From contig BRYA01001055.1 in assembly GCA_030267965.1 (NCBI GenBank), forward strand, positions 35,665 to 99,664: 64,000 nt of DNA, given 5' to 3'. Each line of letters begins with the position of its first letter. Position 1 is the first letter of the stretch. Shown one piece after another: positions 1-59,400 of this stretch. This DNA comes from Triparma columacea (lineage: Eukaryota > Sar > Bolidophyceae > Parmales > Triparmaceae). A program made the translations under genes and the position numbers. The notes below the pieces were generated by a model. The model saw only the letters and a program-made list of their open reading frames with translations, was not told the origin of the DNA and ran no database searches.

Positions 1-2653
1 TCCTTAAGGTAACGCTCGAGAAGCTTGTTCGTTGCACTGTTGTTGACGACGTGCTCGAAGTTCTTGATGTTCTCCCTCAACCTCGCTTGAATCTCCTTAA
101 TATCTTCTTTGTTAGACTTCTGAGTTTTGATGCTCCTCTTCTTCTCTTCGATCTTGTTCTTGAGGACGAGCCACTTTTCCGTCTCCTGGATGACCACCCT
201 AAGGTAGGACTTCGTCATGATCACCTTACAGCGATCGATGTCAGCTTGGTTAATGTGTCCGTTGCGCAATTTGGTAAGCTCCTCCTTGAGCTGCCTCAAC
301 GCTATGAGACCCTCAAGGTCGCTCATGAACTGCTTCGAGACCTTGTTGGACGAAACGAGCTGCGGAATAATCTTCTTGTGGAAGGAAAGGAGATCATAGA
401 GAGACCTAAGTTGGCGGCCGTACTGGGCCTCCTCCTTGACGCAGAATTCGATCTCTTGCTCAGGGGCGAGGTTGAACTCAAACCTGGAAAAGTTCGCCGT
501 CTTCTTGACGCACTTGTCTTGAGTTGTGATGACGAAGCCTCCGTGGAGAGGGGAGGCAGTGTGATCGACATAGAGCTTACTCACAGACTTTTCTGAAGAG
601 CAGTTCTTAATCGTGTACTTAGTCTCGCGCTCCGCCTGAAAACAAACTTGGATTCCATCGTTTTTCTGCCTCCCACTGCAATCGATGTATGTAAGCTCAC
701 ACCTGATGATCTCGTCTTTGTTTGATCCCTCAGTAACTTTTCTAGCAACATCCACTGAACTGTCATAAGCGAAAGGGTGTTTTGAAGAGGGTGAGAATTT
801 TCGTGGTGATAAAGGGAGGGAGGGGATCTACGCTCGACCTTACCTGTCTTCTCCGTACTCAATGAGCTCGTCGTCTCCGGGAATCATGGGGGTGAAGTTG
901 ATTTGAGAAACGAACCTGTCGTCGTCGAAGATACTCATGTCTCCCGGGGAAAGCGGAGTATCGCTATCGTTGAAGAGGTGAATAACTTTCTTCACAGCAA
1001 CCTCACTCTCCTTTGGGTCGTAGTGCAGAACACGGTCCCCGAGGAGGGCAAAGTTTCCGATCGGAACCATAGCAGATTCTGTGACGAGTGAATCGAAGCG
1101 AAGACCGAAGGGTTGCTGTTAAGTGGTTGGGTTGTCTTTTTGTGATTTTCATCCACCCTCTCACCTCCCGACTTGATGGAGCATAGTTCCTTGCTCTCGT
1201 AGATCACATCGTGCATCTGGCACTGCCTGACGTTGAGTGACTCGTACTGAAAGTCATCATCGTCCACCGTGATATTGCGAGACGTCGCCTGAAGTGACAC
1301 GTTTCCAGGTCCCCCACGAAGGCGCAGGACGAGGTGGATGGTAGACTCCTTCTGGATGTTGTAGTCCATAAGGGAGCGGCCATCATCGAGCTGCTTTCCG
1401 GCGAAGATGAGGCGTTGCTGGTCCGGGGGAATTCCCTCCTTGTCTTGGATTTTTTTCTTCACAGCGTCGATGGTATCAGAATACTCGGTGTCAAGGGTTA
1501 TGGTCTTGCCGGTGAGTGTCTTGACGAAGATGTTGCCGCCACTGGAGTAGTTGGCTTTTTTAATCTCCGCCATTGCCTTCGATTTAGCAACGGGGTTGGA
1601 AGAGGACGACGATGAAAGAAGGGTGACCTCGGAGGGAACAAGAGAAATAGAAATGTTTGACCAGTCCTCAGAAGTGGTGTTGGTGACGTTTCCAAAGACG
1701 TTGAGGTAAACCCTGCTGTCGGTTGCGAGGGATGTGGAGTCAGCCATGGCATCGGCGTCGTCGATCGCGGAGGCAGCAACAAACTCAGACTGAACTTGGT
1801 CCCAGTCGCGGTTCTCCTTTGGGATGTTCATTCGGTACGAGCACCTCCACTCCTTCATCTTTCCAACATGACCGACAGACATTTTTCTCGGCTCCTCGTC
1901 GCTACCACTCCTCTTCGTCTTGATGCTGATTCTCGTCTTCCCGGTGGGGTTAGGCTTGGGCTTCTTGTTGGACATGTTCTTACTAAGAGCTGCCATGAGC
2001 TGCTCCTGGAGGTACTGGTCGATTATCCTAAAGGACTTTAGGGAGGAGAGGGGGATTGAGGAGACAGTGCAGGTCGCAGAGTTGAGGATTGATATTTGGG
2101 AGTAGAACTCAATGACGGGAGAATCATGACGCAATTGCTCTTTCTTCTTTTCGATCGACATCAACAGGCACTCGGTAATCGCACCGTCTGTCGTTGTCAA
2201 CTCAAGTCTGGATCCAATGAGTGAGGACAGAATATCACCCTGAGACTTGAGGACACCGAAGTTGAACGGGAAGAGGTTAGTATCAGAAGGGGTGTCGCCA
2301 GGAACGGGGTTCGAGGTGAGGTTAGATGTGTCCTTCGAATCAAAGTTTATTGAAACGGAGGTTGTATCGGGAGGAGGAGTGAGGGAAAGAGTGTCAACTG
2401 CGGTTTTGGGGGTCGAGAGTGGAGTAGGGGGGTGGAGATTGGTGTGTTAGGGTAGTCAGGTGGTGCAAGGGTAGCGAAAACCCACGTATTGGCTTTCCAA
2501 GATTGAAGGCTCACCCACGAGGTCTCTCTCTTTTTGTTGAACTTCCAATATGTAATCATTTCCTCCGTCAGCCTTCGCCTCGCGTTGAAAGAAGGCAAGA
2601 GGAGAGGTGTAGAGTGTAACGTGTTTGAGCGATAATTGTTTGGGGGACTGCAT
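1..2653 (-). CDS. DUF4140/DUF4139 (mucoidy-inhibitor A-like) protein with embedded ubiquitin; 3' end outside window
   Basis: Exons by phase matching: 2653-2515, 2397-1165, 1078-844, 759 to beyond base 1. Donors are GTGAGC, GTGAGA and GTAAGG. The start is chosen because [18 protein letters not shown] at the N-terminus fits the DUF4140 strand (xVTVYxxxAxVxR). Exons 2-4 carry the DUF4139 region, including an [16 protein letters not shown] stretch and a [12 protein letters not shown] stretch typical of that family. A near-complete ubiquitin is coded at 1531-1310, in the middle of the DUF4139 region; it keeps the lysines equivalent to K6, K11, K48 and K63 and ends LRLRGG followed by Pro. The C-terminal exon is predicted helical or coiled-coil and is still open at the window edge. 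The molecular function of eukaryotic DUF4139 proteins is unknown to me. Confidence 0.8.
1310..1531 (-). other. Embedded ubiquitin domain
   Basis: This segment codes about 74 residues that align with ubiquitin from [13 protein letters not shown] to the C-terminal LRLRGG, with roughly ten substitutions by eye (for example [12 protein letters not shown] in place of LEVESSDTIENV). It lies within one exon, so it is not a splicing artefact, and the DUF4139 sequence continues in frame on both sides. The residue after GlyGly is proline. Most deubiquitinases cut poorly before proline, so the domain may stay attached (inference). Confidence 0.9.
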
Positions 2654-3605: not shown

Positions 3606-3690
3606 AATTGTGGAGGAGTGAGGAGTGTGCACTTGAGAGCCACGAAGAATAAGTGATATTTTGCTGCAAATAGATAGAGGATTTTCCCTA

Positions 3691-9816: not shown

Positions 9817-11061
9817 ATGATGCGCCCAGAAATACGTCTTACTGCTCGACCTTCCTTGTCTCGCCTCCTTACTTTCACCCTCTACCCTCTAGTTGGGTTC
9901 TTCGCCTTGCTGACTCTCTTATTTCTCTATGATATCGAGCGAGGGCTCACTAATATCTCTCCATATGAGGCGAGACGAGCATCGAGACAGCACTTTAGAC
10001 CATCTTCTTCCTCATCTTCCAGCAACTTCGTTGTCGACGACAACAACGCGGCCCCAGACCTCACTGTTTACAAGGGAAACCCTTGGATAACAGACCTGAC
10101 AGCGTCAAGAACGGTACTATACCAGACTGCCTTTGCTTCATGTGAGGTCCATGATGTTTGGACTGAGGATCACAGCGCGATACAAAAAGACTGGCTGTGG
10201 GCCGAGGAGATCGATCACGTCAATGTTATCGTAGTTGATGAGGCTGGAGACTTCTACTTCTTCAAACAAAAGGTGAGAAGGGATGGGGAAGCTGGGGTCA
10301 ATTTGCGATGCCTCTACGTCTTCACCTTCCTCACACCTCCATCGGTACAACCTGCATCGTCGACACTTTTCACTAACCGCCGTCCACTCTCAACAACCAA
10401 CCCACGCTCTTATCCCCCCACCCTCGCAGAAGTACGGTTTAGAATCAACTTCGTTTGCGACAGTGGGTGGCTTCATTGACGTGGAGAAGGTGAGAATGAT
10501 GGGCAAGATGTTAGCGTGACAATTCTATTCACCAACGCCACTCGTTGGTTGTCGCTTCGCTCTTACTTAGGGGGAGACTGGTTTTGAGGCCTGTCGACGG
10601 GAGGTTGTCGAGGAGATGGGCATGACGTCTCCAGCTCACCTTCATTCTCTCACGTCCTCAACTCCCTATGATGCTTCTTCTGATCCCAATTGGATCCCCC
10701 TTGGCCGGTATCGCACGGCATCGAATCGGGGTGGCGGCTTCCTAACCGCGTACCTTCTGAAATCTGCCGTAAAGATTCCCGATCAGTATCTCAAAGAGGC
10801 TGGCTACGAAGGCCTGGGGACTGGCGCTGGTGTGGTTGGCGGGGAAAAGGGGAACGCTGATGGGGAAGAGCAAAAGGTTGTAAAGGTGAGAAACGAAAAG
10901 AGGCGAAAGCACAATTCTCAACACTAACGTGTTAATGCAATCTCTTAACTCGGCACTCGCCACAGATGAACTTGACCCGAACTCGCACGATCCTCCTCGC
11001 TGGGGGCTTCCAAGAAGTGAAATGGACTGCGTCGCTTGCCCTTGCCCTCCTCCACCTGTGA
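9817..11061 (+). CDS. Membrane-anchored Nudix hydrolase
   Basis: Four exons, 9817-10272, 10430-10489, 10571-10885 and 10966-11061, all phase 0 with GTGAGA donors, give 308 aa. Residues 18-42 are one hydrophobic segment with basic residues before it, so probably a type II signal anchor. The Nudix box is split across the exon 2/3 junction: GGFIDVEK then GETGFEACRREVVEEMGM. It keeps the metal-binding REVVEE core, with two extra residues in the first loop. The last exon (FQEVKWTASLALALLHL) matches the C-terminal helix of ADP-ribose/nucleoside-diphosphate-sugar pyrophosphatases. It probably hydrolyses a nucleoside diphosphate linked to another group, but the substrate and topology are inferred only. 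Confidence 0.8.
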
Positions 11062-14294: not shown

Positions 14295-17200
14295 CTAAAT
14301 CTCAACCTCCATGTCCGCTAACTTGCCCCCCCCCCCCTCAACCTCCGGTTTCCCCCAACGCTCCTTCAAATACCCATAGCTGGAATAATCACCACTCTCT
14401 GACAGCGCCATGCCAATCTTCTTCACCAAACAGACCCTCTCTCTCCTCTGCTTCTTTGTCAGATCTTGCATCTTCATGTGGACCCTTCCAGGCACTTTCA
14501 CGGGCTGCCACTCGGCATTGAATAACGGGTACCTGTCCACAACATACTGCTCCATCAAATACATGGTGTGCTCTCCCATCACACTGGCGAGGCACCACCC
14601 GTACTCCTGCACCTTCTTCCTCAGACCCTCGTCCTCAGCCTCCTGCAAGACGACAGGCCACCAGGCACCGTTGATTTTTACCCAGGAGAAGGCCCTCACG
14701 GGTTTCGCCTTGGTCCAGACGTTTACTGGCATGTACCCGTTACTCTTCTTCATCTCCGTCACGGTCCTCTTTGCCCGAGTCTTCCTCCCCACCACCTCCT
14801 CCTTCCTCTTCTCGTCAATCTTCAAGACCCTCTGCACGGCCTCATCTCCATAAACCCTATCATGCAGCACATCCTCGCCGTCTTGCATCTCGGTGAGAAG
14901 GTTTAGCAAATCCTCCAGGAAGGCAAAGATGAGAGTGCTGAAAACTGCGATGAGCGAGGTGACGAGCAAAGAAATTTAGGTAAAATGAATGAGGCCAGAC
15001 ACGACGTAACATAACCCTTTCCGCGCACTCCCTTCACACTCACCTGGAATCGTCTCCGCCCTTTCAACCTCCTTTATCCAACCCATTCTCCCTTCCCTCT
15101 TCAACGCCCCAACAACCCCCCACATCCTCTTACTCTTTTCAACCGCAACGACCACCTCTCCCTCCAAATCACCCCCCTGCGCCCCCTCATCATCATCATC
15201 GCTATCGTAATCGTCGTCGTCGCTGTCCTGATCGTCCATGGCAGCTAAGGCCTTCTGCTTCAAATCGTCCGGCTTCAAGTAAATGTGCATGTCCTTTTTA
15301 TCAGGGGTGGTGAAGTCGAAGTCGTCAATGTCAATCTCCTGCCCGTTGACCTTCCCCTCCTGCCCTGGTTGCACCCCTCGGACCCCGAATTCATCCTTGA
15401 CGTACCTGTCCACGTCGGCCCTGCTTCTGAGCCTGATGCCCTCGGGCGTGTAAAAGGTCATATCCGCCTTGTCCCTATCCTTCCTCCAGTAGGCACTCCT
15501 GTGAAACCCCCTGTATGGAATGTTGTTGTAGATACTCTTGATGTCGAACATTTTCTTCCTCATCTCCCTCTCGTATCGCCTCTCCTTTCTGGCCTGCCTG
15601 GCCTCCTCACTTTCCTGCTGGAGGAAAATGTCCTCGTTGACCTTCCAGCAGTCGTCAACGTACCTCCCCCCGGCCTGATTGTACACAAGATTCTCGAGCT
15701 TCAGCAAGGGCTTTCTGAGCTCCTTCAGCCACTGCTTGGTAATCCTCGCGTCCGTGACGTTGCCCTCGTAGTCGATCATCTTGTTGGCGATGGCGTCCTC
15801 CCAGCCCCTTTCAACTGACTTCACGTTATTTCTCCACTTCTCCCTCTCCCTCGTGTCCATTCCGCAGATGATATTGACCTGGGACTCGGCGTAAAGTAGC
15901 TCTCCAACGATAATGCTAACGCCGCTCTCCTGCCACACTGAGGTGACCTTGTGGCTGTCAATGTTCCCGCACTCGTATCTTGGGATTTTAAGGTTCTTCC
16001 TTACGCTTTTCAAAGGTGGGTTAATCACGCTGTACCCGTGGTCGAACTCCAGCACGCTCAAGATTCCCGACCTCTCCATCGCCCTCTTCTCCTCGCTGAG
16101 CTGTAGCTTCTCCTCCTCGTCGTAGAGGATGGAGGAGACGACAGGGGCATCCTCCTCCTTCGAAGATGACGCCTTAGGGACCTCATCAATTCCGTTTTTG
16201 CTCTCGTCAGGAATGCTCACTCTGACGAGCACGCTTGCGATTGGACTGTCGGGGATATAAACGTCCAAACTCCCCAAGACGGTGCTCTTGCCAACGACAG
16301 ACCCCGGCATCCGCGTGCTGCGCCTCTCGACCTCCCCCAAGATCTTCTTCTTTCTGTTGCTCTTCATCTTCTTCCTAATTAGTATGATGTGGTCCTTCAG
16401 GCTCTCGAGAAGCACGAGCTCCCGCTCCCCCTTCTTGTCGAGGGACTCCACGAGCCTGTCAAACTCCGTCTGTGTCTCATAGTATGACCATGAGCCCCCC
16501 CTGCTCTCGACCCATATCCTCCCCTCGTCGTTGTCGAACCACCAGTACTTGTTCCAGTCCCTGTCCTCCCCCAGCATCTCCGTCCTGATCAGATCTGTGC
16601 TGGAGCTCGCCAGGAGCTGCTTCTCCGTGGCCAGGGTGTCGTTCTCCCATTTCCTGACGTCGGCATCGGTGGGGTTGCCGCGAACGTTCCCGGAGTGGAT
16701 GGAGTACTTCTTGGGCGCCCAGGCCTTGCCGGCCTTCCTCTTGGCGACTTCCTCCTTTTTGTCGTTTTCGTACTTGGTCCTCATCTTCTTACTGATGTTG
16801 CCGAGCCTGGTGTACTCCCTTTTGAGCGCGAAGAGCGCCGAGGCCCTCCTGTCCATCTCCGCGGGGAGGAGCTTCGCGACGACGTCCTCGGCGAGAATCT
16901 TGAGAAGACAGACCATCTCCTTCATGTTCAACGCGTCAGGTTCGAAGCTCCAGAGCTTCTTGTATGCCTTGTTGAGTGTAGAAGAGGGCTTTCCAAAGTA
17001 AGAGTCGTCGTCGTAGAGGGTAGCGGGATCCACGTCATCGGAATTCGTGGGCATGGGAGAGGGGGATGACGGGAGTCCATTCTCGGCCGCCGTCGCCCGG
17101 GTGGTTGTCGCGGCTGGACTGGTGGGGGACAACTTCCCGTTGGAAGCAGAAGGCTTGGACGGGGTCGTCTGTCTAGCCTCCATCAGCTTCTTATTTTCGT

Positions 17201-18892
17201 TCATCAAGCTCAGGCTCTGCTTCTCAATCTTCTTCCTGTGCTCGAAGTAGAGGCTCTGGTTCTCCAGGTATATCGCCAGTACCGCCGGCCAAGTCATCGG
17301 GCTGCCAAAAGCAAAGCGAGTCGCATAAGGGGTTAGAATTGTGCGACGAGCTTGAGAGGGAAAGTTGCAAAAATAGTTTGCACGTTGTCAAAGTGTCGTA
17401 GGGGCGCTCCTCCGTACTCTTACCTGATAACCTTGAGCATATCTCTGCTACCCGAGTACCGTTCCTCCGCCTCGTCTCTCGTGATGTCGTAGCCCTGGTT
17501 GTACACGCTCTGCCCAACGTCGTCCTTCCCGAGGTGGGAGTCTACCACAATGATCAGGAGCTGGGTGGCGAGGGCGCTGATGAGGGGGGGAGAGGGCCCC
17601 TTCCCGACCTCGAGGAACGCCGTGAGGACGTGGTCGAGGTTGAAGATGGGGGTAAGGCCGATCTCCTTTATCCCAAGCTGCCCCATCACCACCCCGTGGA
17701 TAAAGAGAATGTCCCCCACCATGCTCCCGAGATGTTCGTGGGCCTTATTCCCGACGGGCTTGGGGTTGGTCTTGGTGAGCTGCTCGTCGGGCACGGGGTA
17801 CCCCTTGGTGATCCCTTCGATGGGACGCTTGAGGTACCCCATCCTCAGCCTACCCCTAACCTCTTCCAGTCTCTTCTTGACCTCCTCCCTGTTCCCGTCG
17901 TTCCTCCCCTGCTTCTGCCTCTTTTTCCAGTCGCTTGCCAGCTTGTAGCTCCCCTTGATCTCCTCCCACCACTTCTTCTCACACCCCAGCGCCATCGCCT
18001 GCTCCATCGCGACGTCGAACCTCCGGGCCTGAGTCTCGTTGTCTAGATCCACGTGCATGGCATCCGCGCAGAAGTTCTTGACGTTCAGACGGCTCACAGG
18101 AGGCCTGAGCGCCAAGAGGCAGTCAAGTATAACGTCAGCATACCCCCTCCTCCTCTTACTACCCCCTCCTCCGTTCTTCTTCTTCGCGCTGCCACTCTCC
18201 TGCTCCTCGAGGAACCTCTTTACCTTGGAAGGGTTGTCCTTGGACATGTCCTTGACTAAGGGCTCATCAAAGGGGATGAACTCACCCTCCTTTATCCACA
18301 TGGTCTTGGTGCCATTCTTATAGCCACAGAGGGACTTTGCCGAGGCACATAGCTCCAAGACGGTGACAAGAACGTGAGGAATATGGACTCTGTGGGGAGA
18401 TGTGTGTATGTTTGTGTGTATGTGTGTGTGTGTGGAGGGGGGGGTGTTTTAGTTAGTTGAGGATTGTTTTGAGGGTGTTTATCGATGCGGGACAGAGGGG
18501 AACAGCGCGGTGAATTGGCATGACGAGTAAGAGACGGGTAAGAGAACGTGCCAGATTGGTGAGTCGAGAAAGAAGTTTGAGGAGACTCATCGACGGTGGT
18601 ACGACTACGACACTCAATTTCTGCTCTTTATGGCCATCAGTGAGCAGCTTACGGCATGAAGAGTTCTCTAAGAGTATAGATAACCCATAATCTAGCAGTT
18701 AAGCACACATAAACACCACAAAAGCAACAAAACTCACCTCTTTATACTCTTGGTCTCCGCTCTGCCCACTCTCCACAGAGTGTGTGTCGCCATGAGAGGG
18801 TGAGATGGAGCTTCAGGCGGATCTGACGGCGGTTGGGCACACAGAACGAACGTGTCCTTGGCGGGGAGCGCGGCAAAACGTTTGTCCTCCAT
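14295..18892 (-). CDS. DDT/WHIM chromatin-remodelling subunit with PWWP-like C-terminus
   Basis: Exons 18892-18738, 18389-17424, 17301-15044 and 14944-14295 join in frame to 1,342 aa. A DDT-type helical domain is at about residues 270-335 (ILFIHGVVMGQLGI, LDHVLTAFLE, LISALATQLL). A WHIM/WSD block is at about 600-675 (TEMLGEDRDWNKYWWFDND, RIWVESRGGSWSYY). Such pairs occur in ACF1/BAZ and plant RINGLET-like partners of ISWI ATPases and position nucleosomes. Near the C-terminus, WVKINGAWWPVVLQ (about residue 1200) looks like a PWWP or related reader, which I hold less firmly. Acidic Asp-rich tracts and coiled coil lie between. Exon 1 was found only by phase matching and its ATG is the best start. 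The role is nuclear. Confidence 0.82.
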
Positions 18893-30900: not shown

Positions 30901-33900
30901 AACAAGAACAACCCGTGGCTTGTGTAGTTCGCAGTCGCTAATCTCATCTTCGAGGTCAACGTCTCGAAGTAGATGCCGTCCCTCTCCGTCCTAATGGACT
31001 CGACATAGTTTTTGACAAGAGAAGTGAGATCCTCTAGTTCGTTGGTCGCGTTGGGGTAAAGCGTATTGAGGAAGTTGGCGATTGATTCGGTGTCGGTACA
31101 CGCCTTTCTCACTCCTTCCTTCACTTTTGGGCTCGAGTTGCTCTTGCTCGGGGACATCCTTGCTCTGCACAGTTCCTCCATGGCAAGCTTCGCACATTTG
31201 AAAACAGCCAGCTTGTCCTGTTCTTTCAAGTCCGAAGGCAGGTGGCGAAGAAAAGAGGACGTGAGGAGTCTGCGGGCATCTGGGAACAGTTCAGGCTGCA
31301 TCCTCGCCATCATGCTCTCGCCGCCAACTTTAGAAAGTAAGTCCAGATCCTCGCTCGCAGAGATTGGTTCTCCGGGGCGAGGATCCTCACAGGGACGGTC
31401 AGAGTTAGGAAACGCAAGTTCCTGGAATTCCCCCCCCCCTTCCCATGCAATCATGCCATTCTCGGCAATTTGGGGCAACGCATCACTTTCGCCAGCAGTC
31501 CACCCTCTCCCGACTCCCTTGGCGACCTCGACGAAGGCTTTGGCGACCAAAAGTTGCGTCGGAAAGGATGGCTTCGCTTGCGCCCTTCCCTTGGCCTTCC
31601 AGTCGACCCCGTCAACCGCGACCTTGCCGTCAAAGACCCCCCCACAGACCACGCCCTCCCATAAGTGGCCGGCTAACGTCTTGAACCTGCAGAAATGACC
31701 AAAGTTGTCAGGCTCGACGAAACCTGATAATATTTTGTCTCCATCTGGCCCAATGACGCCATCTGAGACATTGACGGTAAAAGTCTCCTTGACGGGGCTC
31801 GGGGGAGCGGTCAATTCTCGCGACCTCAGGAGCGACGATACAGGGCTGTCCATGCTTCTCTCCATCTCCCAAATCCCGCTGAAGCCTGCATCTGGAACCT
31901 CGAGTTTCCCCAAGTCCACGAGGCTCTGAAGCACCTTCATCCTAAGGCCATCCTCGAAATCCCCTCCGTACTTCCAGATTACGACAAGGAGCCCATTTAC
32001 AACCATCTCCCTCCACCAGACTGGGTTCGAAGGGGCAGGAATAACTTTACCTGCGTGGTCACTGACGACCGAGCATGACTTCACATTGCGCAGCCACTCA
32101 TCGATTCCCTCCCCCCCACCGTTACTGACGAGGATATTGACTTCGTCGTCTTTTTGGTACATCCCTATGGTGGGGATGAGGTCTCCGTCAACTGGAAGAT
32201 CTTTGAAAGCAGCCCCGTAATCCTTCACACTGCCGTCCTTCGCAGTCACGACAAAGCTCATTTCCCTCTTTTCTCTGTCGACCTTGACATCCACCCTGTC
32301 TCCAGTTCCCCAGCCTGAGACGAGCAGGCAAGGAGCGAAGCGACGACCGGAGAGTTTAGTAAGGTTAGCGGATTAGGTTCCTCGCGACGCGGGAAAGCTG
32401 TCTTGCTCTTTGTCCATTCTCACCTTCTCCGTAAGACCTCCTCTTTTCCCTGCCGAACCAGACTGCCTTGGTTCCTATCACACCCCAGCCCTCCTTGTCG
32501 CCACCGACGTAAGTCTTGAGGTTGGCCATGTCCGTCGTGACACCCAGGAAGGTGTGGGACTTGGGGGAGAGGACAATTTGAACGCTGAAACAGTAGACTT
32601 CTTTGGGTTTGATGCGTCGGTTCGTTTGGACGCTGCCCCAAGTCTTGCCGGCCTTTTGCTTCGCCCTGCTCGCGTCAATGACCTCGATGCTGGGGGCGTG
32701 CTTCGTGAACTGAAGCCTCTGCCCTCCGGAACTAGACGGGGAGAGGAAGAGGCTGGGGACGACGATATCATTCAAAACTGCGGTGACAGTCGAGATGAAA
32801 GGGGTCGGAGCCGGAACGGAGCGCTTGCTCAAGATGTAAGACGTCAAGACATCGAAAACTTCCCGAGGAAGGCTCCTCCAGCGCTCTCCACCGTAGCTAG
32901 AGACGGCAACGTGGAGAAGGGAGTCCTCTTCTTGGAGGATTGCTTGCTTCAAGGTGTCGAGATCGAACCAGACATCAAGCCCACGGAGGACGTATAGGAT
33001 CGCGTGGTTGTTGGAAGCGAGGTTAGCATCCTCGAGGGTCTTTACGTCGTCGAGTCCAACGCAGGCCCCTCGTCTCATGGCCTCGATGGAGGCGTTGCGG
33101 ATAATTTCCTTCATATCTCCCTTCCTGCGAAGGATGGAGGGCGAAGAGGGGGGATGAGAGGGGGGATGAGAGTCAGCTTCAAGGTGCGGCATCTTTCTGT
33201 GTGAAATGTTTCAGCTCTCACCTCCTCTTCTCCTCCATCATCAAAGCTTCCTCCCTAGCCTTGGCCTTGCGAACGAAACCTTTTCTAGTCAGGGTGTCGG
33301 TGTAGTCCTCGTCGGCAGAATCAACGGAGGAGGTCGGGGAGGAGGGACGGGAGGTCTTCACGGGTGCCGAGGAGGCGGCGGGGTCAGGTTCTGGTTCAGT
33401 GGGAGCATCGTAATTGCCAGCGCTCGAGTCCGCGGCGGCAGGAGGAGGGGCGAGACGATCAATGTCCAACATGACCTTGCTACCAGCCTTGAGAATTGAG
33501 CTCACAACTTTGTCGTCGGCCTTGGTGGCGGGCATGCTCTGGAGCATCTTAACCACCACGTTGAGCACGACCATCTTGGGGACGGACGCAGGAGGGGCAG
33601 GGGAAGGGGGGCCGGGAGTGGTTGGGGAGGAAGGTTCAGGGGGTGGTTTGGTGTCTGACAGAGAGAGAGCGAGGGCTTCCCGGAGCATTTTCTGGTAGGG
33701 GGAAGGAGTGGGTGAGGGAGGGGGAAAGGAAGGCGAGGGGTAAAACAGAACGACTACTCACCTCCTCCTCGTCCTCACTGTCATCCTCTTCTCCACCTGC
33801 TGGACTAGCAGCGGCAGCTGGCGTCTGAGACTCAGAGCGCTGATCCTGAACTTTTACATGAGCAGGAGCGTCAAGGAGGCCCTCCCTCACGAAACCGGGA

Positions 33901-40157: not shown

Positions 40158-43100
40158 CTATATGATGCAAAACTTCAAGTAGTTTCCCAGTCCAGCCCTG
40201 TCCTTCCCGCCCCCTCGCTTCCCTCCCCAACCTTTTCCGCCCACGCCGTTTTTCGCGTAGTTGGCGGCGGTCCACCCGCGCTGATCCTTGGCATCCCTCT
40301 TGGCTCCCATTTTTAGCAGAGTCTTGCAAAGGTTCAAATTCCCGACCCCAGCAGAAAGCATGAGAGCAGTGGTACCACCGGCATTCTTCATGTTTACCCT
40401 CAGCGCAGTGGCAAGCAATATCTTCAAGACCATCTGGTGGTCACCTCCTACCTCAGTGCTGAACTCGCAGGCGACCATGAGCGCAGTACTCGCATTCCGA
40501 CCCGCCCTATCGTCGACCGCGTTAGGATCCGCGCCCTGCATCAAAAGCGCCCTCAGTACGAGGTGCTTCCCCCTCCTGCAGGCATCATGAATGTAGCTGT
40601 TGGTAGGATCGTTGAGGACGCATATCGCGCAGAGAACGTGCCCATTGTTTGCAGCAACATCCGAAGCGGCCCTGTCCCTGACGCAGCCCGCGCGGAGGAG
40701 CTGGAGTACAACCGCCTCGAAGCCCAACCTGCACGCGTGAAACAGAGCGCTCTCACCGTTCCCATCTTTTGCCTCGAGGTCCACTCCATCAACATCAAGA
40801 ATGGCAGCAACCACCTGTTCGTCATCAATCTTGCAGCCTGCGATGAGCGCAGTGCTTCCCCCCCAGACCTCGTTGATGTCGACTCCTTGGGCCAACAAAG
40901 CCTTGATTCCTCCAAGGTCGCCGGCACTGGCAGCTTGAACCATCATGTAGGTCGACGGGACACACCTGATGATGTCCCCAGCATCCTGCATTCCTTTCGA
41001 TCTTGCCCAGTCAAGCGCCGTCCGACCCTTCAGGTCGCCAAGATCCCTCCTCGCGCCAGCTTTCAGAAGTTTTAACACAAGGTCTGTGCCCACCCCCCCC
41101 GCGTACATAAGCGCCGTCTGGCCTTTCCCGTTCCGGATGTTAATATCCACGCCAGGGACCTCGAGAAGGTATTCAAGGACGTCCGGCCTGTTGTAGGCTG
41201 CGGCTGCAATGAGACACCCGCCAAGCTCGTGCCTTACACTCTCGAAGTCCTTGCCCCCCTCCTCCCATGGTCTCCATCTTTCAATCCTCCAGTCAGCAAA
41301 CCCACCTGATTCAACGAGGTGCACGGAGTTGATGTCGACTCCCTGCATTAAAAGCGAAGTGATATCCAACAATGTTCCAAGTCCAGCCGCACAGCATATG
41401 GAGCATGTGACCGGATCGTTTGCAAGGAGCGTGCCCGTAAGGTTGTAGTTTCTGCCCTTATCGTTGCTCTTCTCAACCCCTCCCTCCGAATGTTCCTCGA
41501 ATTTTGCCGCAGCGATGTCCAAAGGCGTCCTCCCTGAGTCATCTTTCGCGTAGCGGTCACCACCGCAGCGAAGAAGTAGGGCCATCATTTCACCGTAACC
41601 CTCCTGTGCGCAGTAATGTAGGGGAGTCATGTTGAAGCGGCCCGGGTAATTCGGCGAGGCCATGTTTCCTCGGAAGAGAGGCAGAAGCCACTGGTCACAG
41701 AGGAGTGCTGAAGCGGTGGCAATGTCGTTATTGTAAACGCTAGCAATCAGGGGGGAGTAACCGAAGGATGAAGAACGCACATTGCAATTGACACCCTGCA
41801 TGATCAAGGATCTGATGGAAGAGCTATTTTTTGCCTTTGCTCTCTCACAAATCAGTTCGCGCCGGGTCTCCGCCGTGGAAGTTTGTGGGAGTATATTTGA
41901 CAGAAGATCGACGATGCTCGCGTTTGACGACTTTTCAGCCACCACAAGAGGGGACTGGCCCGAGCCATTATTTGCCTTCATGTCAGCTCCCGTAGCAAGA
42001 AATGCCAGAGCGATCCTGATTTGGTCCGTCGGCGAAAAAGCGGATGAACAGAGGAAGTGTAGCGCATTTTCCTTGTCGCAATTCTTCTGATTGATGTCGT
42101 CTGGGGAATCAGCGCATTCAATAATTTTCAGAACGTTATCAACGACTCCGGCCTGTATCGACTTCATGAGGAGGTTGACCTTCTTGGGGGGGTCCCATAT
42201 CGACCACACGTCTATCCCCTGGAGTCTAAGGTTGAGGATTGTCTTCCAGCCTCCCTGCAGCGCGCGGAATGTGTTGTATTAGTGCTTCAGGTCATATACT
42301 GCTGCTTCCCACACTTCCACTTTCCAATTCTCACCTCCTTCGAGGCCACCTTCATGGGATCGACCATTTTGGGATCACACCTGAGAAGTTCGACCATGTC
42401 GACCCATCGTTCTTCTTGCGAATTTTGCTTGACCCTCCCCGCAAGCCTAATTTTCTCTGCAACGATTAGCGGAGTCTCGCCCTTTCCATTATTTCTGTAC
42501 CTGTCGGCTCCCATTTCCAGTAGCATTCCCACCATCTTCTTGTCCCCCCCCCTCAAGGCCTCAAACAATGGCGTCTCGAAGGGAGGCTCATGATCTACGA
42601 TGAGCGAGGCGAGTCGCGAAGAGGATTAGGTCAAGGCTCCCTCCCGTGCAGAGACAATCGGAGACACAATCATATTCGCGTCGTTCTTTCACTTCTTCCC
42701 CATCCTCACCTTCATTAGTAAAATCTGGGAGCCTTGCAATCACGACGTTGGGGTCTAGAAGGCCAAGGCAAGACTTCTGGAGGAGTTTCAGCAAGTTAAC
42801 GTCACGGGAGCAAACAATTTCCATCAGAACACCTGTAGTGTTGGAAGGATCAAGCACATTTATTGCGTACTCAAACTTGGAGTCCGGACTGCTGCTGTCG
42901 GGGAGGAAAGAAGGCCGTTAGTCTTGAAATGAAATTGAAAGCCAAGGTTAACACTTTTCGACATTCTCACCTCTCCCCAGCGCCAGTTTGCTCCTTCAGT
43001 TCCTCAACGGCCTTCTTAGCCAGGTCGGCGTTGCGCGTTTTGATGCACCTTATGACCTTCAAGAGTCCCTCATACCCCCTCTTCCGATCTGCATTCTTCA

Positions 43101-44626: not shown

Positions 44627-47107
44627 ATGCCGCTTCCCGGGGAGGTGAGAAAAACTGATTGCACTCTCGGAGGTTTCGACTCGTCTGACACAATATTTTG
44701 TACTATTACCGTCGATGCGTTCCATCTGTCCACAGTTTGTGGGTTCCAACTCCTTGGATATATTGTGATTTTAATGCTCCTTTTTTGTCCCCCTCTCTCA
44801 CCCCTTCGTTATATCGCCCGTAAACTCCAGGGATATCGCGAGGTACTAGGGATCGCAACGTTGGTGTCCTCCATGTTTTTCCCGTTTGGAAGTTTGGCAC
44901 TCTACTATCACAGGAGGCGTTATCACCCCATCAAAAGGAGCGGTAGGCCAAAGATTCCGTTCGTTATGATGTGAGTTGGGGGATAAGAGGAGTGGAAGAG
45001 TGGGGTAGAAGAGGAAATATGGGGGAATGTGTCGTCGATTTAATGCTTACCATGCCCTTCTCTTCCCCCCCCCACAAAGGTATATTGGGATCCTGATGTC
45101 CTCCATCGTGTCCTACGTGGAGGCGTTCGGCTGGGAGACCATGCCTTGCTTCGTCCACATGTTTGCCACGGTGCTCTTCCCGCCCTTCTTTTTGGCCCCT
45201 TTGAGTGTGGGCGCGTTCTGCCATTTCAAGGAGAGCAGGATCCATGCAAAGATGGCGAAACACGCCAACGATATCAACTTGACGAACAGGACAACAAGGG
45301 ACAAGGAGATGTTCACGAAGCTCGTTAACGATTTGAAGACGGAGAGGAAGAATTTGAGAGGGGTGAGTGGGGGGGCGAGGGGCGGTTCGCTTCGCTCACC
45401 GCTGAAGGGGTTTGGGGTGGGGGCGGTGAGCGAAGCGAACTTTCGCTGAAGGAGTTCGGGGGCTAATGTTGCGTCCAATGTTGGGTCCTTTGCTTGGCCT
45501 TTTCGTGCCCATTCCTCATACTTAAACCCACCCCCACCCCGCCGTCTAACTTTATTGTGTCATCCATCGTACCCATTATGCCGCCCATCTAACCCTCCAT
45601 GCCCTTCATAGTTCAACGTGAAAGCAATCATACTATTCCTCGTAATTTATGGGGGCATGTTCACCTGGATAATCTTCTCGTCCGTGCTCTCTAGGGACTT
45701 CGCCTCCATGATGAAGCCCCTCGACTCTCACCATGGTGACAGATCCTGCACCGATGTCATATTGAGCATCACCCAGGACGAGACCGACGACCCAAGGAAC
45801 ATCGTCGCCTACTTCGGGATGATTCTTTACATGTCGAGTCTGATATTCATTTCCCTGATATGCTACTACACGAAACGCCGTGGCCTCACCGACGACTACG
45901 GGATTACGAAGGAGTACAAGTACGTATGTGCTCTTGGTTACTTCACGCTTTTCATCTACACCGGCATCTACTACTGGCACGTGTGGTTCCCCGAGAGGCC
46001 AGTAAGGTTCTTTGAGAAGGAGGTGGTGGACCCCATCATTGTGTTCGTCATAAGCCTAACGATAGTGTACGGGATCCTCGTGCTATGGCCCGCCCTCAGG
46101 ACGTACAAGCAGGGGGACGCCGCTGCGATGGGGAGGGTGAGCGTGGACAGCACTGACATGATTGAGGTCCTCAACTCCAACCTTTACTACCTCTTCATCG
46201 AGCACCTGAAGAGCGAGTTCTCGGTGGAGAATTGCCTGTTCTGGAAGAAAGTACAGCAGTTTAAGATAGACTACGGGGGACTGGACGACGAGGGGACGGG
46301 CGTGGGAAATTCGCTTAGAGGCAAGAGGAGCAATAGCGCGGGAGCGGGGCTGTTGGGGATGAGCACACGTCACCTGGGCCCGGGAGGACATAACCCCATA
46401 GTCGGCTCGGATTTTGCACCCGGCGGGGCGGACGATACGGCGAGGGAGATCTACGACATGTTCATAAAGGACGGGGCTCCCATGGAGGTCAATATTAGCA
46501 GCGAAATTAGGGGCAAGATAGAGAAAGAGATCGAAGGGAAGAGGGACGCCGTCGGGCCTTGCGTCGAATGTGGGGAGCAAAGGGAGAGTGGGGTGCAGCT
46601 TGGGATGGAGGCCGAGGAGGGAGGGATCGACTTGGGGGTGTTTGACGAGGTGAGGGAGGGCGATGAGCGAAGTGAGGGCGATGAGCGAAGCGAGGGCGAC
46701 GAGCGAAGCGAGGGTGACGAGCGAAGCGAGTTGCGGCAAGAATTGCACTCCGTGCGTGGTTCATAACAAGGTCCCGTGGGTGCGGTTGATCGTCTCCGTT
46801 TGTCGTGGAATTCTTGGAAAAAACACAAATCCTCATCGACCCCCACCCTCCCAAATCCCCCAACCTAACTATAACCCTCCCCCCCCCCCCCTTCCCCGCC
46901 CTCCGTGCGCAGGCCCAGAACGAGGTATTTAAACTAATGGAGAGCGATAGCCTCCCTAGGTTCAAGCAGGGTAAGCTTTTCAAGAATTACGTCGAGGCCT
47001 TGAGCCCGAAGAAGCACCTGCTCGGGAGGCATATAGGAATGGAGCACGGGGGGGCCAAGGAGCAGCAGAAGGACGGTCTGGGGTACGTTGGGGATAACCA
47101 GCTTTAG
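44627..47107 (+). CDS. Multi-TM protein with C-terminal RGS domain
   Basis: Exons 44627-44970, 45080-45362, 45612-46649 and 46913-47107 give 619 aa. About eight hydrophobic helices occupy residues 35-375. An RGS domain follows from about residue 388: NLYYLFIEHLKSEFSVENCLFWKKV, then after a roughly 60-residue Gly-rich insert AREIYDMFIKDGAPMEVNI, and across the last intron FDE/AQNEVFKLMESDSLPRFKQG. RGS domains speed GTP hydrolysis by G-alpha subunits. A receptor-like membrane part joined to RGS is the layout of plant AtRGS1 and some protist proteins. The last intron contains an in-frame-open 18-bp repeat array, so an unspliced reading would wrongly extend exon 3. It converges with TBCA 44 bp away. 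Confidence 0.85.
45385..45440. repeat. Perfect 18-bp inverted repeat inside intron 2 of the RGS gene
   Basis: Arms 45385-45402 and 45423-45440 are exact reverse complements (GTTCGCTTCGCTCACCGC), with a 20-bp loop. It lies 22 bp downstream of the donor. The core GCTTCGCT is the same element found at the 3' ends of other introns in this window. Confidence 0.9.
46659..46730 (+). repeat. Intronic array of four 18-bp units
   Basis: Four units of GGCGAYGAGCGAAGYGAG sit just after the donor of intron 3 in the RGS gene. The array contains the GAGCGAAGCGA motif found in other introns, here amplified in tandem. Confidence 0.9.
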
Positions 47108-49720: not shown

Positions 49721-50257
49721 TTACTTGGGAACTTTGACCATGGCGGGCTCGTTGGTTGAGAGATAAATCTGATGAATGGTGCCGCTCGACTCGGGCGAAA
49801 TAACTTGGAAACCCGGCGGGTGCGGGCTCATCATCAACTTTGTGTAGGTTATGTGTGATTGGACGAGGAATACCTCGTCGCCCGGCTGAATACCAGGGGT
49901 GTAGTGGGTCAATAGTCTAAACTGGGTTGGAGATAGATTGAAGAGCTCTGTAGAAGGTGTGTGGATAGATGGAGTCGAGGAGGTCGGCGGCATATTTTGA
50001 AGGAGATGGTTTCTCTTCCTCTTCTTCCTCTTCTCCTCCTCCTCCTTCCTCCTCATCTTCTCCTCGTTCTCCCTCTTCCTCCTCATCTGATGCTCGTCGA
50101 AGAGATCGCCTAAGGCCTTCTCACCCTCCTTGTATTTCTCTAAAGCTGCGGATGGATCGTAGGCAGGGAGTTGCTGAGAAGCATTGGTGTTGGGGAATGT
50201 GGGGGGGGATTCCCATGTTGACCTTGTTGACACTGATAGATTGTGGGGCGTAGACAT
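49721..50257 (-). CDS. Hypothetical coiled-coil protein
   Basis: A single exon of 178 aa. Residues 35-85 are a highly charged Lys/Glu/Arg coiled coil. Residues 100-178 look beta-rich (FRLLTHYTPGIQPGDEVFLVQ). No family recognised. An ATG 97 bp upstream in another frame could begin a first exon, but I find no donor for it. An 82-bp piece of this gene (49891-49972) has a diverged second copy near 52113. Confidence 0.55.
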   Translation of the reverse strand: MSTPHNLSVSTRSTWESPPTFPNTNASQQLPAYDPSAALEKYKEGEKALGDLFDEHQMRRKRENEEKMRRKEEEEKRKKRKRNHLLQNMPPTSSTPSIHTPSTELFNLSPTQFRLLTHYTPGIQPGDEVFLVQSHITYTKLMMSPHPPGFQVISPESSGTIHQIYLSTNEPAMVKVPK

Positions 50258-50641: not shown

Positions 50642-51870
50642 ATGAAGCTCCTACTCGTTTCCTTTGGTTTAACCTTGATCTCAGTTGAATGCTTCAAACC
50701 CACAACCTTTGCTGCTCCCAGACATTCCAGGTCCTGCTGCTCTGGCTGCCCCATTTGCTGCCCTACCACCCTTGCTGCCGTCTACGGCGAACCCCGTCCA
50801 GTTCAGATAATCCCTTCTGTCCTCCCAGCTGATTTTGGCAAGCTTGGAGCGGACTGCAAGGCCCTCGAGGATGCTGGATGCGACCGCATACAGTTCGACG
50901 TTATGGACGGGAACTTTGTGCCAAACTTGACATTCGGACCTGACACTATCAGATGGTGCAGGCAGGTGAGATCAGACAAGGAGCGAAGCGATGAGCTAAC
51001 AACGCAATCGCAAGTGACGAATCCCACACAGTGCTTGTACAAGATACAACTGCTTCGTAACTATCGCCATCATCCTAACCCCTTTCGCGATTCACTTCGC
51101 TCCTTGCAGTACACGACCCTGCCCTTTGAGACCCAACTAATGGTCTCGGAAAAATGCACAGATGCCATGCTACCCCAGGTGAGTTTGGACGAGAAGCGAA
51201 GCGACAGCAAAAGTAACACACCGCATTATCACGCATCCACATAACTAATCCCTCTCCTCGTCGCTTCGCTCCTCGCCCCGCTCTTCGCTTCACTCATCGC
51301 ACAGTTCACCGAGGTCACAAAAGGCCCAAACGGCGAGCCTGGCGTCGTGATCGTCCATGTCGAAGCTTGCACACACCTTCACCGTGCCCTCTCCAGCATT
51401 CGCGCTGCCGGTGGTTCTCCGTCTGTCGCACTCAATCCTCACACTCCTCCAGAGATGATCGAGAATGTGCTTGACCTCGTTGACCACGTTCTCGTAATGA
51501 CAGTCAACCCAGGGTTCGGGGGACAGGCTTACATACCCACCATGACTGATAAGATCAGGAAGATCAGGAAGTGGATAGGTGAGAAGTGCGCTGGCGTTTA
51601 TAAAAGTTGTGCGCGCACCTCGCTCAAGACGCGCCTTCTCCTTAACCGCGATTCGCTTCGTTCATTGCAGTCGACCGTAACCTTGATGTGGATATCGAGG
51701 TGGACGGGGGAATCAAGGCTACAAAGGAGACGATTGGTGCATGCGCAGAGGCCGGCGCCAACTGTTTCATCGCTGGGTCCGGACTATTTGCTTACGACGA
51801 CATGGCTCAGGGAGTGAAAGAGCTCACTGCTCTCGCAAAGGAGGGACAGGGCCTACCTGCTAACGCATGA
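50642..51870 (+). CDS. RPE: Ribulose-phosphate 3-epimerase, plastid-targeted
   Basis: Exons 50642-50965, 51110-51178, 51305-51578 and 51671-51870 give 288 aa. The enzyme interconverts ribulose 5-phosphate and xylulose 5-phosphate in the Calvin and pentose phosphate cycles. It has IIPSVLPADFGKLG, the metal/catalytic FDVMDGNFVPNLTFG, HVEA, SVALNPHTP, MTVNPGFGGQ and VDGGI plus the GSGLF phosphate-binding turn: a complete TIM barrel. Residues 1-25 are a signal peptide ending VECF/KPT, with Phe at the cleavage point, then a Cys/Ser-rich transit stretch, so the protein should enter a complex plastid. All three introns carry a TTCGCTTCGYTC-like motif near their 3' end. Confidence 0.92.
50980..51103. 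repeat. Intron-terminal inverted repeat, RPE intron 1
   Basis: GGAGCGAAG at 50980-50988, just after the donor, is exactly complementary to CTTCGCTCC at 51095-51103, just before the acceptor. Pairing would bring the splice sites together. Confidence 0.75.
51196..51269. repeat. Intron-terminal inverted repeat, RPE intron 2
   Basis: GCGAAGCGAC at 51196-51205 is exactly complementary to GTCGCTTCGC at 51260-51269. The arms lie towards the two ends of the 126-bp intron. Confidence 0.75.
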
Positions 51871-52266
51871 AACGTAGGTAGCGCGGGGTTTTACGGGGGC
51901 CGAAATGGCATTACGAGGAACAAACGTGACAACGGCTTGCCCTGCGCTGACCAAGATCTTATTACCACGCTTAACAGGGTACAGTACGAGGCTAGAGGGA
52001 GACGATGGGCATACTGGGATTAGGTATTTTAGGAAATTTAGGCTTTTTCACACCAAAACTCTCTTTTCATGATTCCGATCCCACTCCCCGCTCCTCAGCT
52101 CCCCCATCTGTATACCAGGGGTGTAGATGGTCAACTCTCTAACATCGGATGGAGATAGATTGAAGAGCTCTGTAGAAGGTGTGTGGATAGATGTTGTTGG
52201 AAAACCCTAAAATCCGACAATTGGCCCAAAACGATTGTTTCCTGAGCCAACTTCTAATTAGGTGTC
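51871..52266. other. Intergenic spacer holding a duplicated gene fragment
   Basis: This 396-bp spacer separates the epimerase from the next plus-strand gene. It holds the 3' end of RPE, the promoter of the next gene and an 82-bp copy of part of the 49721-50257 gene. This is roughly where housekeeping genes give way to subtelomeric ones. Confidence 0.5.
52113..52194 (-). repeat. 82-bp dispersed duplicate of coding sequence from 49891-49972
   Basis: About 73 of 82 positions match by eye, with a block of about 43 identical bases at the right end. The original lies inside the 178-aa coiled-coil gene; this copy is non-coding. Confidence 0.85.
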
Positions 52267-56493: not shown

Positions 56494-59400
56494 ATGAGTA
56501 ATGCTTCCAAGACCGGACAACAAGAAGCAGGGCATATCGACCCCTCAGAGTCAAACCTCTTGGGCGAACTGGCCTTCGAGGACATGATAGAGGTTAGTGA
56601 GAGGACTAACAGAGTCAAGGAAGGTACGTGAATAGGTCGAGAGTGTTAGTTAGGGAATGTTAAGGGGGACTGAGGGGTTCTGTTCGACTTCGGAACGTCC
56701 AAAATCTCAAAGCTTACCCGCTAACAACCTCCCCCCCCTGCCATCGTTTCACCACCGCAGAGACGTCTGGCAGAGATCCTCAGACTCAGGGGATAGCCGA
56801 GGATGGGGACCTTCTCCAAACTGAAGGAGTGTCGTCACCATCAAAGGTTGTTAACTCAAATGAAGGCATGCCTGCATCGAGAGAGGTAATGTCTGTTGCA
56901 AATACCATTGATGACCAAGAAGAGTCTAACGGAGAAGTCATTGAGGTCAACGGGGAGCTTGAGGAGGGTCTACCACCCGTATTGGAAAACGATTCTAAGC
57001 CCGTAGCGTCACCTAGGCTTCATGAGGAGAGTGAAGGTTTCTGGCAGGAAGGTGAGAGTGGACGAAAAAGGGAAAGAACGTCATGAGATCAACACGCAGG
57101 AACATTTAATACCGGCACAAATTGTGATCGTGACCATCTACTTTGTCTATAGCCGCCCTTAGAATGCACAATTTTATAGCTCACCAACGAAATCTCATCC
57201 ACGTCATTGTCTATCCCCGCGCAGAGATGAATGGAAGTGACGCACAGGTTTGGGCGCAGAGCAATGTAGAAGACCCCTCTAATCATAAGGGAGACCCTAC
57301 GCCGTCAGAGGGTGCTAAGAGGACTGAGATTTCAATTGAGAAAAAGAAGGAAGTCTCGAGGATGGTTAAGCACGACGCATACGCTGAATGGGCTGAGGGA
57401 GGTGAGTTCGGGTAGTTTAGGCTTCCTGAGGAGGTGGAGGCGAAGGAGAGGCTGCTTTCGGCGCTTATCGGGCAGCTGAGGTTCGTCAAATTTCATCCAT
57501 GCAAACTTCGCTAATCTCATCGCCAAACGCACCGTCACGGATGTAACCACGCCTACCATCACAGCAGGGCCTCGAGGCGGTTATCATACTCAAGTATTAC
57601 CTCAAGAGGGATCTCTCTCTGAAGGTGACGGAGTCTCACTGCCGTTGCAGGTCGTCAGTACAAGCGAGGGCGTGAAATTAAACACGTCAAGTGAGAAGAG
57701 TGCGCTCGACACTAAAGCCGAGGGAGTTGAAAGAGGTGAGATAAGGGTAGATGGGGGTTAAAGGGGGGAGGGAGATGATAAGGGAGGTTTAGCGAGCGGA
57801 GTTTGTGTGACTGCAGAGGCTCGTCAAATATCATAAAAGTATATGTGTCAACCCCACCAACACGTATATCTTCATAAACAAACGCCCACGCTCACATTCA
57901 CAGCGACGCCTCGAAAGGGCGCTCACTCTCTGGTAGGAGAGGATCCCCTTGATACAGTGGGAGGTGTATCGCAGTCGTCACATATAGAGAATTCAAGTGA
58001 GGATATGCAAGAGGTGAGATGAGATGAGGAGCGAAGTGACGGGCTGAAAACGTTAAGGAATGTGAGGGAGAAAATACGCAGAAGTCTTTAATTCTGTATA
58101 AGATGCATCTCAAGCCTCACACACTGCCGCTGCGATACTAACTCTTCGTAAAACCCCATTCTTGCACAACCCTCCACGCTTGTCACAGGTGAGAAAGGAA
58201 TCAGAGTAAAAACAATGTCGCACCTTGCAAGCCACGCCCATGCGCGTGATGATTTTGTCTCTTAATATAATCTCGCTTCCCCTACGGTCGACGTTACTAT
58301 TCCTAACCCTAACGTCTTTGCTTTCGCGATTTGCTTCGCTCCTCACAGGAAAAGGACACAGAAAAAGAATCCCAAGGAGGGAGAGAAGAACGTGTGGAGG
58401 AGACTCATTTACTTCAGGTTGACGCCCCGATGTCCGATAACTGCCATTCAGTACCCGATCTAGGCCATGAGAGGCAAGTTACTCCGTCTTCGTCAATTGA
58501 AAGACCTCATGGGGACGCTGAACGAGGTGAGTTCGTGTTAGGGGGTTGTAGGGGCGGAGATTCTTGATACTCTACAGAGAAACGAGGACGATATATAGGA
58601 ACACGCGTGGAAATCTTTTCAGTTTGACTAACAAACACCATTATCGCCATTATCGCAGACTCTGAAAATGGTCTTGAGGACGCCAGACGAGGTGAGTTGT
58701 GCGTTGAGAGCTGGAAAAGAAAAATACATTTTAATACTCTAGGGGAGAGCAGAAGAGTCGCGGGAGGGCGCGTTGAAACTTTGTAGTTTTTTCTCACCGC
58801 CTGTGTGCGGAATGTGCGTTTCAAAAAACACCTCATTCATCCCCAAACTACCCTTCCACCTTTCAGCCTTCCCCCCCCTCACGAGCATGAAAGTTACCCT
58901 CAAGCAGGAGGACGAGCAAGTCATCGCTGTAAACGACGACAACAGAGGCCTCACTGACCAAGAAAAAAACGTCGACGTCGAGAGCGAAGTAAATGAGGAG
59001 ATTGTTGGTGCTCCTGACGATATTATTGAGTTGATCAATGACAATGATATGGAGAAGGGACGCGTTACTCGCGTCAAAGATCCTCCCGACGAGCTTGACG
59101 ACGCCGAAAATTTGGAGGACAAAAAAGTCGAGAAGAGCGAACTGCCCCCTGTCGGTGTCGGCGACACCAGACAGACTGATGAGGAGATTGACCAAGCCAC
59201 GTTGGAGGCTCTTGCCAATATTATTAGGAACGAGCCACAGGATTACACCGAGGAGGAGGAAGCGGTTATGAGGGACGGCAAGGAGTTCTATAGGAAGTGC
59301 ATGGCGAGCAAGAAATTCAAGAATTTGAAGAGTCCAGATCGCAGGGTGAAGATGAAAGCTGTGCACCTCGAGGGTGAAGGCCTGGTGGTTGGCGTGTGCG

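What the first reader, a model, noticed from the sequence alone, without database searches (positions are those of the whole stretch)
1079..58348. A shared GCTTCGCT element near intron 3' ends, possibly introner-like
The core TTCGCTTCGCTC or a close variant lies in the last 10-40 bases before the acceptor in at least eight unrelated introns: DUF4139 intron 2 (1091-1102), Nudix intron 2 (10551-10562), HECT intron 3 (32332-32347), all three RPE introns, START intron 5, and looser forms in the DDT gene (14945-14966) and ankyrin intron 5. In RPE introns 1 and 2 and START intron 5 a complementary arm lies near the donor. Terminal inverted repeats in introns are the mark of transposon-derived introners, described in pelagophyte algae. 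Alternatively it is a splicing enhancer.
Basis: partly seen in the sequence, partly recalled or inferred. Interest (0 to 1): 0.8.

Follow-up and report, generated by a model that had tools for sequence, protein, structure and literature searches.

The report
Ageing introner family in algal introns
The repeated GCTTCGCT tag marks the 3' end of an old family of self-copying introns that seems to have seeded roughly a fifth of the introns sampled in this single-celled alga, which lets one ask how many ordinary introns began as mobile elements.

Summary
TTCGCT is about tenfold denser in predicted introns than in exons, mostly in the last 40 nt. The tag is not a lone enhancer but part of a diverged intron family (B): GTGAGAATGGACAAG...CACTAACGCAACCC...CTCGCTTCGCTCGTCGCAG. 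The head 15-mer occurs 35 times in the genome (reversed control 1); all 34 fetched sites are predicted sense-strand intron donors. Outside the window 18 of 82 introns score 4 bits or more; no shuffled or reversed intron of the 108 does. One pair of genes without other similarity shares the intron from donor to acceptor. A second repeat (A) has a similar last ~31 nt. Inverted arms are real in a subset but are no family-wide hairpin. No target-site duplication was found (n = 32). Verdict: introner-derived introns, most of them old; route of spread unresolved; pelagophyte placement not supported.

The parts
42595..42709 (-).
   Evidence: nhmmer E 7.5e-7 with a profile built from 32 introns outside the window, model 13-110; 25.2 bits; ankyrin repeats in the exon 40232-42254 of the same strand
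32315..32423 (-).
   Evidence: E 3.4e-5, model 1-109 from the first intron base
50966..51109 (+). RPE intron 1, family B with inverted arms CAAGGAGCGAAGCGA / TCACTTCGCTCCTTG
   Evidence: E 2.7e-4; arms 14 of 15, p 0.001; removal restores a 288-aa RPE
51179..51304 (+). RPE intron 2, family B with inverted arms (17 of 19 nt)
   Evidence: E 0.0075; arms; RPE frame
51579..51670 (+). RPE intron 3, family B tail only
   Evidence: E 0.31, model 76-111; no inverted arm (p 0.18)
58014..58348 (+).
10490..10570 (+).
   Evidence: E 0.14, model 2-106; my gene finder joined it to a longer intron (10490-10786)
14945..15043 (-). DDT-gene intron, weak family B member
   Evidence: E 0.17; 7.5 bits; WSD domain in the neighbouring exon
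17302..17423 (-). Intron on the other side of the same WSD exon, family B tail TGCGACTCGCTTTGCTTTTGGCAG
   Evidence: E 0.15, model 56-111
1079..1164 (-).
   Evidence: E 0.51, model 68-110
45421..45540 (-). Family A repeat copy lying antisense inside the + strand intron 45363-45611, with a second facing module at 45386-45397
   Evidence: 86% identical to query positions 11-129 of the family A query (G000:C695:81085-81204:-); sequence; module
46659..46730 (-). Four tandem antisense copies of the 3' module just inside the donor of the predicted intron 46650-46912
   Evidence: tail profile E 0.089 on the - strand

Best explanation
The tag is the conserved 3' part of an introner family: short introns that multiplied by copying themselves into new genes. 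A complete copy carries what it needs to be spliced from the start: a GTGAGAATGGACAAG donor end, a CACTAAC branch point, a pyrimidine-rich stretch CTCGCTTCGCTCGTCG that holds the tag, and a CAG acceptor. Insertion can therefore leave the protein unchanged. Most copies are old and only a profile shows that they are related. Shown here: common head, tail and boundaries; all 34 fetched head-bearing copies in predicted sense introns; one end-to-end copy pair; a similar last ~31 nt in a second dispersed repeat that lies in both orientations and at two places where no intron was predicted. Inferred: that copying happened through DNA (a non-autonomous element whose 3' module, with a facing copy near the donor in a subset, is the handle for the mobilising enzyme) rather than by reverse splicing of the excised intron, at odds of about 55 to 45; that CACTAAC is the branch point; and that the tag serves as polypyrimidine tract.
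For: Head 15-mer: 35 in the genome, reversed control 1; 34 of 34 fetched sites are predicted donors of sense introns (the 35th lies in L026, also an intron). Tail CGCTTCGCTCRTYGCAG: 93 against 0. Block CACTAACGCAACCC: 86 against 1. Profile from head-selected introns: 28 of 108 introns at 4 bits or more, 0 in 20 dinucleotide shuffles and in the reversed set; outside the window 18 of 82. Tail-only profile: 14 hits at E up to 0.5, all in predicted introns, 13 on the sense strand. L108 (C300) and L102 (C485) share the intron from 1 nt before the donor to within 2 nt of the L108 acceptor in pieces of 87-98% identity, with no match outside it; splicing L102 gives a frame in which a DAGAT domain match spans the junction. 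RPE introns 1-3 removed give a 288-aa RPE, 81% identical over 98% to its best hit.
Against: No locus-specific target-site duplication in 32 family B introns. Only one end-to-end pair at E up to 1e-5 among 350 similar pairs of 308 introns, a pool enriched for family A; the published survey wants families of at least four, so by that yardstick the case is open on my sample. Six of the ten window introns listed score only E 0.14-0.51. The family A/B link is modest by profile: 2 hits at E up to 0.01, one of them a separate B-like tail. No presence/absence comparison was possible. Introns rest on my own gene finder. The tail is better conserved than the middle, which selection on splicing could also produce.
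Confidence: 0.83

Rival explanations
1. Convergent splicing signal: the tag is merely this lineage's favoured polypyrimidine tract or intronic enhancer, repeatedly evolved in unrelated introns.
For: Position near the acceptor, downstream of CTAAC-like sequences; the tail is more conserved than the middle; intron tails are C/T-rich in general.
Against: A 15-nt head, of which only GTGAG has a known splicing role, recurs 35 times, and head-selected introns also carry the tail (12 of 34 within 2 mismatches, against 12 of 108 in the sample); one end-to-end copy pair; antisense copies sit in the donor half (5 of 5); a similar module ends a dispersed repeat.
Confidence: 0.08
2. RNA route: excised family B introns were put into other transcripts by reverse splicing, then reverse transcribed and recombined into the genome, as proposed for Micromonas introner elements and fungal introner-like elements.
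For: All 34 fetched head hits are sense and in predicted introns; no target-site duplication; boundaries at the splice sites in the copy pair; AG before the donor in 97-100% of 32 family B introns, though not in L108.
Against: The 3' module also occurs antisense (5 of 29 sites; window 46659-46730; family B tails antisense to the predicted gene in L106); a similar module ends family A, which lies in both orientations (12 sense and 6 antisense of 20 fetched stretches) and twice outside predicted introns (L062, L065); inverted arms are enriched.
Confidence: 0.38
3. Ordinary MITE-type DNA transposon with target-site duplications that mostly landed inside existing introns rather than creating them.
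For: Family A usually starts some 8-100 nt inside an intron and is found in both orientations; L062 shows a copy between two diverged copies of an about 80-bp host stretch; L102 alone has a 6-nt direct repeat.
Against: Family B homology runs from the donor to the acceptor in the best members and in the copy pair; no target-site duplication; no head-bearing family B copy outside a sense intron among 34.
Confidence: 0.12

Closest known systems
Introners as surveyed by Gozashti et al. 2022 (PMC9860276: abstract and outline, passages, sections 8, 15 and 23 read)
   Same: Similar introns in unrelated genes with similarity ending near the splice sites; copies in either orientation are provided for; families with inverted repeats but no target-site duplication are described (Acanthoeca); aquatic hosts are over-represented.
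   Different: Here most copies are too old for pairwise BLAST and need a profile; two families have a similar 3' module. The survey's supplement was not read, so this species could be in it; its main text has no 'Bolido', 'Triparma' or 'diatom'.
Micromonas introner elements (PMC3879977, passages read)
   Same: Introns with conserved sequence, in transcribed regions in sense orientation; copies at new gene positions.
   Different: Micromonas classes are recognised by their conserved sequence and have strain comparisons; here conservation is low, and antisense copies of the 3' module and of family A exist.
Aureococcus introners (recalled, and as cited in PMC9860276 and PMC7789003 passages)
   Same: Stramenopile host, canonical splice sites, inverted repeats.
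   Different: Aureococcus elements are said to have constant direct and terminal inverted repeats; here no target-site duplication and arms only in a subset.
Amoebophrya introner elements with 5'/3' inverted repeats (PMC7789003, passages read)
   Same: 8-20 nt complementary arms near both intron ends in part of the set.
   Different: Those are defined among non-canonical introns, with direct repeats over the exon/intron boundaries; these use GTGAG...CAG and show no such direct repeats in 32 tested.

Membership tests
Introner-derived introns (criteria of PMC9860276, section 15) | Sequence similarity between introns of unrelated genes that begins and ends near the splice sites | tested here: met
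   L102/L108 pair: match from 1 nt before both donors to 5 and 1 nt of the acceptors, E 2e-52; profile matches span most of the model in the best members, e.g. 1-110 in L026 and 1-109 in window 32315-32423
Introner-derived introns (criteria of PMC9860276, section 15) | At least four such introns linked by pairwise BLAST at E up to 1e-5 | tested here: inconclusive
   Only 1 end-to-end pair among 308 introns, a small and partly selected sample of the genome; the genome-wide annotated intron set was not available
Introner-derived introns | Presence/absence of the intron between orthologues or strains | not testable with these tools
   The tool states that this genome has no relatives held
DNA-transposon-type introner (Aureococcus-like) | Target-site duplication | tested here: not met
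   32 family B introns: no position with a locus-specific 5'/3' match (lowest p 0.11), longest shared string 3.88 against 3.85 shuffled. L102 alone shows a 6-nt direct repeat ATCAAG
DNA-transposon-type introner (Aureococcus-like) | Terminal inverted repeats | tested here: inconclusive
   Present in RPE1, RPE2 and START5 and enriched genome-wide (12 against 2; 213 against 21), absent from the family B consensus (p 0.81) and without head-tail specificity over 107 introns (p 0.67); co-occurrence p 0.37 and 0.009 to 0.56 over six cut-offs
Reverse-splicing introner-like element (fungal / Micromonas type) | Only sense copies in transcribed regions, no inverted repeats, no target-site duplication | tested here: inconclusive
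   Head: 34 of 34 sense, no duplication; but antisense module copies and arms in a subset
Splicing enhancer or polypyrimidine motif only | No homology beyond the motif | tested here: not met
   Shared head and CACTAACGCAACCC block, copy pair

The most novel reading that the evidence does not exclude
A fifth or more of all introns of this alga descend from one old mobile intron that has decayed almost to ordinary introns, and its 3' end is a two-way splice cassette shared by two otherwise different families: read one way TTCGCTTCGCTCAC is the pyrimidine tract before an acceptor, read the other way it is a ready 5' splice site (GTGAGCGAAGCG), so the element can make an intron in either orientation. 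Antisense introns starting at that donor are predicted in L056, L060 and L063, but only 4 of the 100 listed sites (190 in all) with GTGAGCGAAGCG are preceded by AG, so two-way use would be the minority.
Probability: 0.3. Interest if true: 0.78.

Novelty: new member of a known kind. Interest (0 to 1): 0.62.

Why it matters
Introners are normally caught young, as near-identical introns. Here the family is seen late: a profile recovers relatives that pairwise search misses, in about 22% of the introns sampled outside the window (18 of 82). If the same holds elsewhere, many introns that look ordinary may be decayed introners, and the share of intron gain owed to mobile elements would be undercounted. 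The alga is probably close to diatoms, and eight Parmales genomes have been published, so intron gain by this family could be dated by comparison.

Tried and rejected
Intron-spanning RNA hairpin as a general feature: rejected. Head-tail duplex energy within introns is no better than between introns (107 introns, p 0.67); RNAalifold finds no pairs in 26 introns; no Rfam hit in the window. Target-site duplications: not found. Viral spread: the head 15-mer, tail pattern and family A end gave 43, 22 and 0 stretches in IMG/VR; most profile scores there are near those of the seed words, and the four best (E 0.0022-0.0034, L121, L126, L137, L131) were not examined further, so I read them as chance. 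Reverse transcriptase partner: 4 RVT_1 matches, a lower bound; I did not test whether their 3' ends carry the module. BLAST with one family B intron (L026) found only 3' fragments elsewhere. 18S identification failed (searches gave no answer), so the lineage is inferred. Pfam found no family in the 84-aa L108 fragment, so its CAG acceptor at 296 rests on the open frame, the match end and a recalled motif; my gene finder preferred AAG at 302.
Full report
What was checked. The 12-mer TTCGCTTCGCTC and its one-mismatch forms occur 13 times in the window against 0.21 expected. To ask where they fall I wrote a small gene finder (exon codon model, donor and acceptor weights, introns and intergenic DNA scored alike) and ran it on the window and on 19 other loci fetched by place from the same 37.85-Mb genome. 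Three of those loci hold masked stretches (L009, L015, L023). Filtering left 108 introns, 26 of them in the window. Sense TTCGCT is 16.3 per 10 kb of intron and 1.4 of exon; without the window 12.1 and 1.3. Within introns 18 of 25 sense TTCGCT lie in the last 40 nt, and 7 of 11 antisense AGCGAA lie in the first 40 nt.

Not just a motif. Many of these introns also began alike. GTGAGAATGGACAAG occurs 35 times in the genome and once reversed. I fetched the 34 new places; in all 34 the word is a predicted donor on the sense strand. Their tails, which played no part in the choice, carry the tag within 2 mismatches in 12 of 34, against 12 of 108 in the sample. A profile of 32 of these introns was run over the window and the 19 loci. 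Its hits include L026 (9.3e-12), the ankyrin-gene intron 42595-42709 (7.5e-7), 32315-32423 (3.4e-5), RPE intron 1 (2.7e-4) and RPE intron 2 (0.0075), and more weakly Nudix, 17302, START 5, DDT, RPE 3 and DUF4139 (0.14-0.51). Reversed sequence gave nothing below 0.8. Per intron, 40 of 108 score at least 0 bits and 28 at least 4 bits; shuffles give 0.25 and 0 on average, reversed introns 4 and 0. Outside the window the figure at 4 bits is 18 of 82. A rough extrapolation is some four thousand introns in the genome, but that is arithmetic, not a count.

Genome-wide words. CGCTTCGCTCRTYGCAG: 93 against 0 reversed. CACTAACGCAACCC: 86 against 1. These were chosen after seeing the family and so describe it rather than test it blind.

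A young copy. Intron C300 (L108) and intron C485 (L102) match from 1 nt before the donor to about the acceptor; in L102 the 3' half is present four times. There is no match outside the intron; L102 is a diacylglycerol acyltransferase whose domain match runs across the junction. [quoted passage not shown] a second, identical pair, L046/L109, is the same place fetched twice). Family B is therefore mostly too old for pairwise BLAST.

Family A. The clustered hits on contig C11 led to a second repeat, GGGGTGGGTTTAGTATGAAG...(CCCAACATTGGA)n...CCCCAAACCCCTTCAGCGGTTCGCTTCGCTCACCGC (by eye), with at least 52 matching pieces in the genome. Of the 20 stretches fetched for it, 12 have it sense in a predicted intron, 6 antisense in one, and 2 (L062, L065) outside. 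The 3' end is the steadier one: 43 of the 52 pieces reach query position 124 or beyond, while 19 start within the first 15 positions (internal repeats split some copies). The window holds one antisense copy at 45421-45540. The ends of A and B agree in 27 of 31 nt when my by-eye end sequences are compared; with the computed family B tail profile 12 of 20 family A loci are hit at E up to 1 and one reversed, only two hits at E up to 0.01, of which the best is a separate B-like tail in L055. I did not compare the rest of the two families systematically. Read backwards the A end is GTGAGCGAAGCG, a good donor, and the gene finder starts antisense introns there in L056, L060 and L063; only 4 of the 100 listed sites (of 190) have AG before it.

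Inverted arms. Donor-side arms are common genome-wide (213 against 21 reversed; by eye about a fifth of the 100 listed are family A tandems), and facing pairs are enriched (12 places against 2). In the sample, co-occurrence of head and tail arms is suggestive at best (p 0.37; 0.009 to 0.56 over six cut-offs). The family B consensus shows no arm, introns show no specific head-tail pairing and no consensus fold. So arms belong to a subset, and a splicing hairpin is not supported.

How it spread. No target-site duplication in 32 introns, although L102 has a 6-nt direct repeat, and one family A copy sits between two diverged copies of an about 80-bp stretch (L062). Sense-only heads and exact boundaries favour reverse splicing; antisense modules, arms and the similar end of family A favour a DNA route. 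I lean slightly to DNA but regard this as open.

Host. Among RPE hits the named ones are diatoms (Pseudo-nitzschia, 85-86%), and an unnamed transcriptome protein reaches 92% over 82%. Parmales genomes are 31.0-43.6 Mb, seven of eight at about 50-52% GC (PMC10328945, passages); the window is 52% and the genome 37.85 Mb. Parmales or a near relative is therefore my guess. That paper's main text has no 'intron'.

Prior art. Searches for introner papers and for Parmales genomes listed none whose title or abstract start tells of introners in Parmales; the survey's supplement was not read, and subscription papers are mostly not held, so absence is not shown.

Noticed in passing
L062 (C774) 186-421: A family A copy lies between two diverged copies of an about 80-bp stretch downstream of a predicted exon, like a long target duplication or an insertion between tandem repeats.
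   Followed up: partly
window 46659-46730; L034; L045; L058; L102; L103; L106: The 3' module is itself amplified in tandem in several introns, in either orientation.
   Followed up: partly
L102 (C485) and L108 (C300): Youngest family B copies seen; the C485 intron holds four copies of about 105 nt of its 3' half.
   Followed up: yes
window 49890-49980 and 52113-52190: A short stretch upstream of the RPE gene (ACCAGGGGTGTAG...GAAGAGCTCTGTAGAAGGTGTGTGGATAGATG) recurs downstream of it, apparently a local duplication.
   Followed up: no
G000 C361:2887, C299:7942, C374:9024, C701:16751: Only four reverse transcriptase (RVT_1) matches were found in the genome, two in frames of more than 1600 codons (lower bound).
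   Followed up: no
   Followed up: no
window 50642-50965: The RPE protein starts with a signal-like stretch followed by CFKPTTFAAP, resembling the bipartite plastid targeting of algae with red-derived complex plastids (motif recalled).
   Followed up: no
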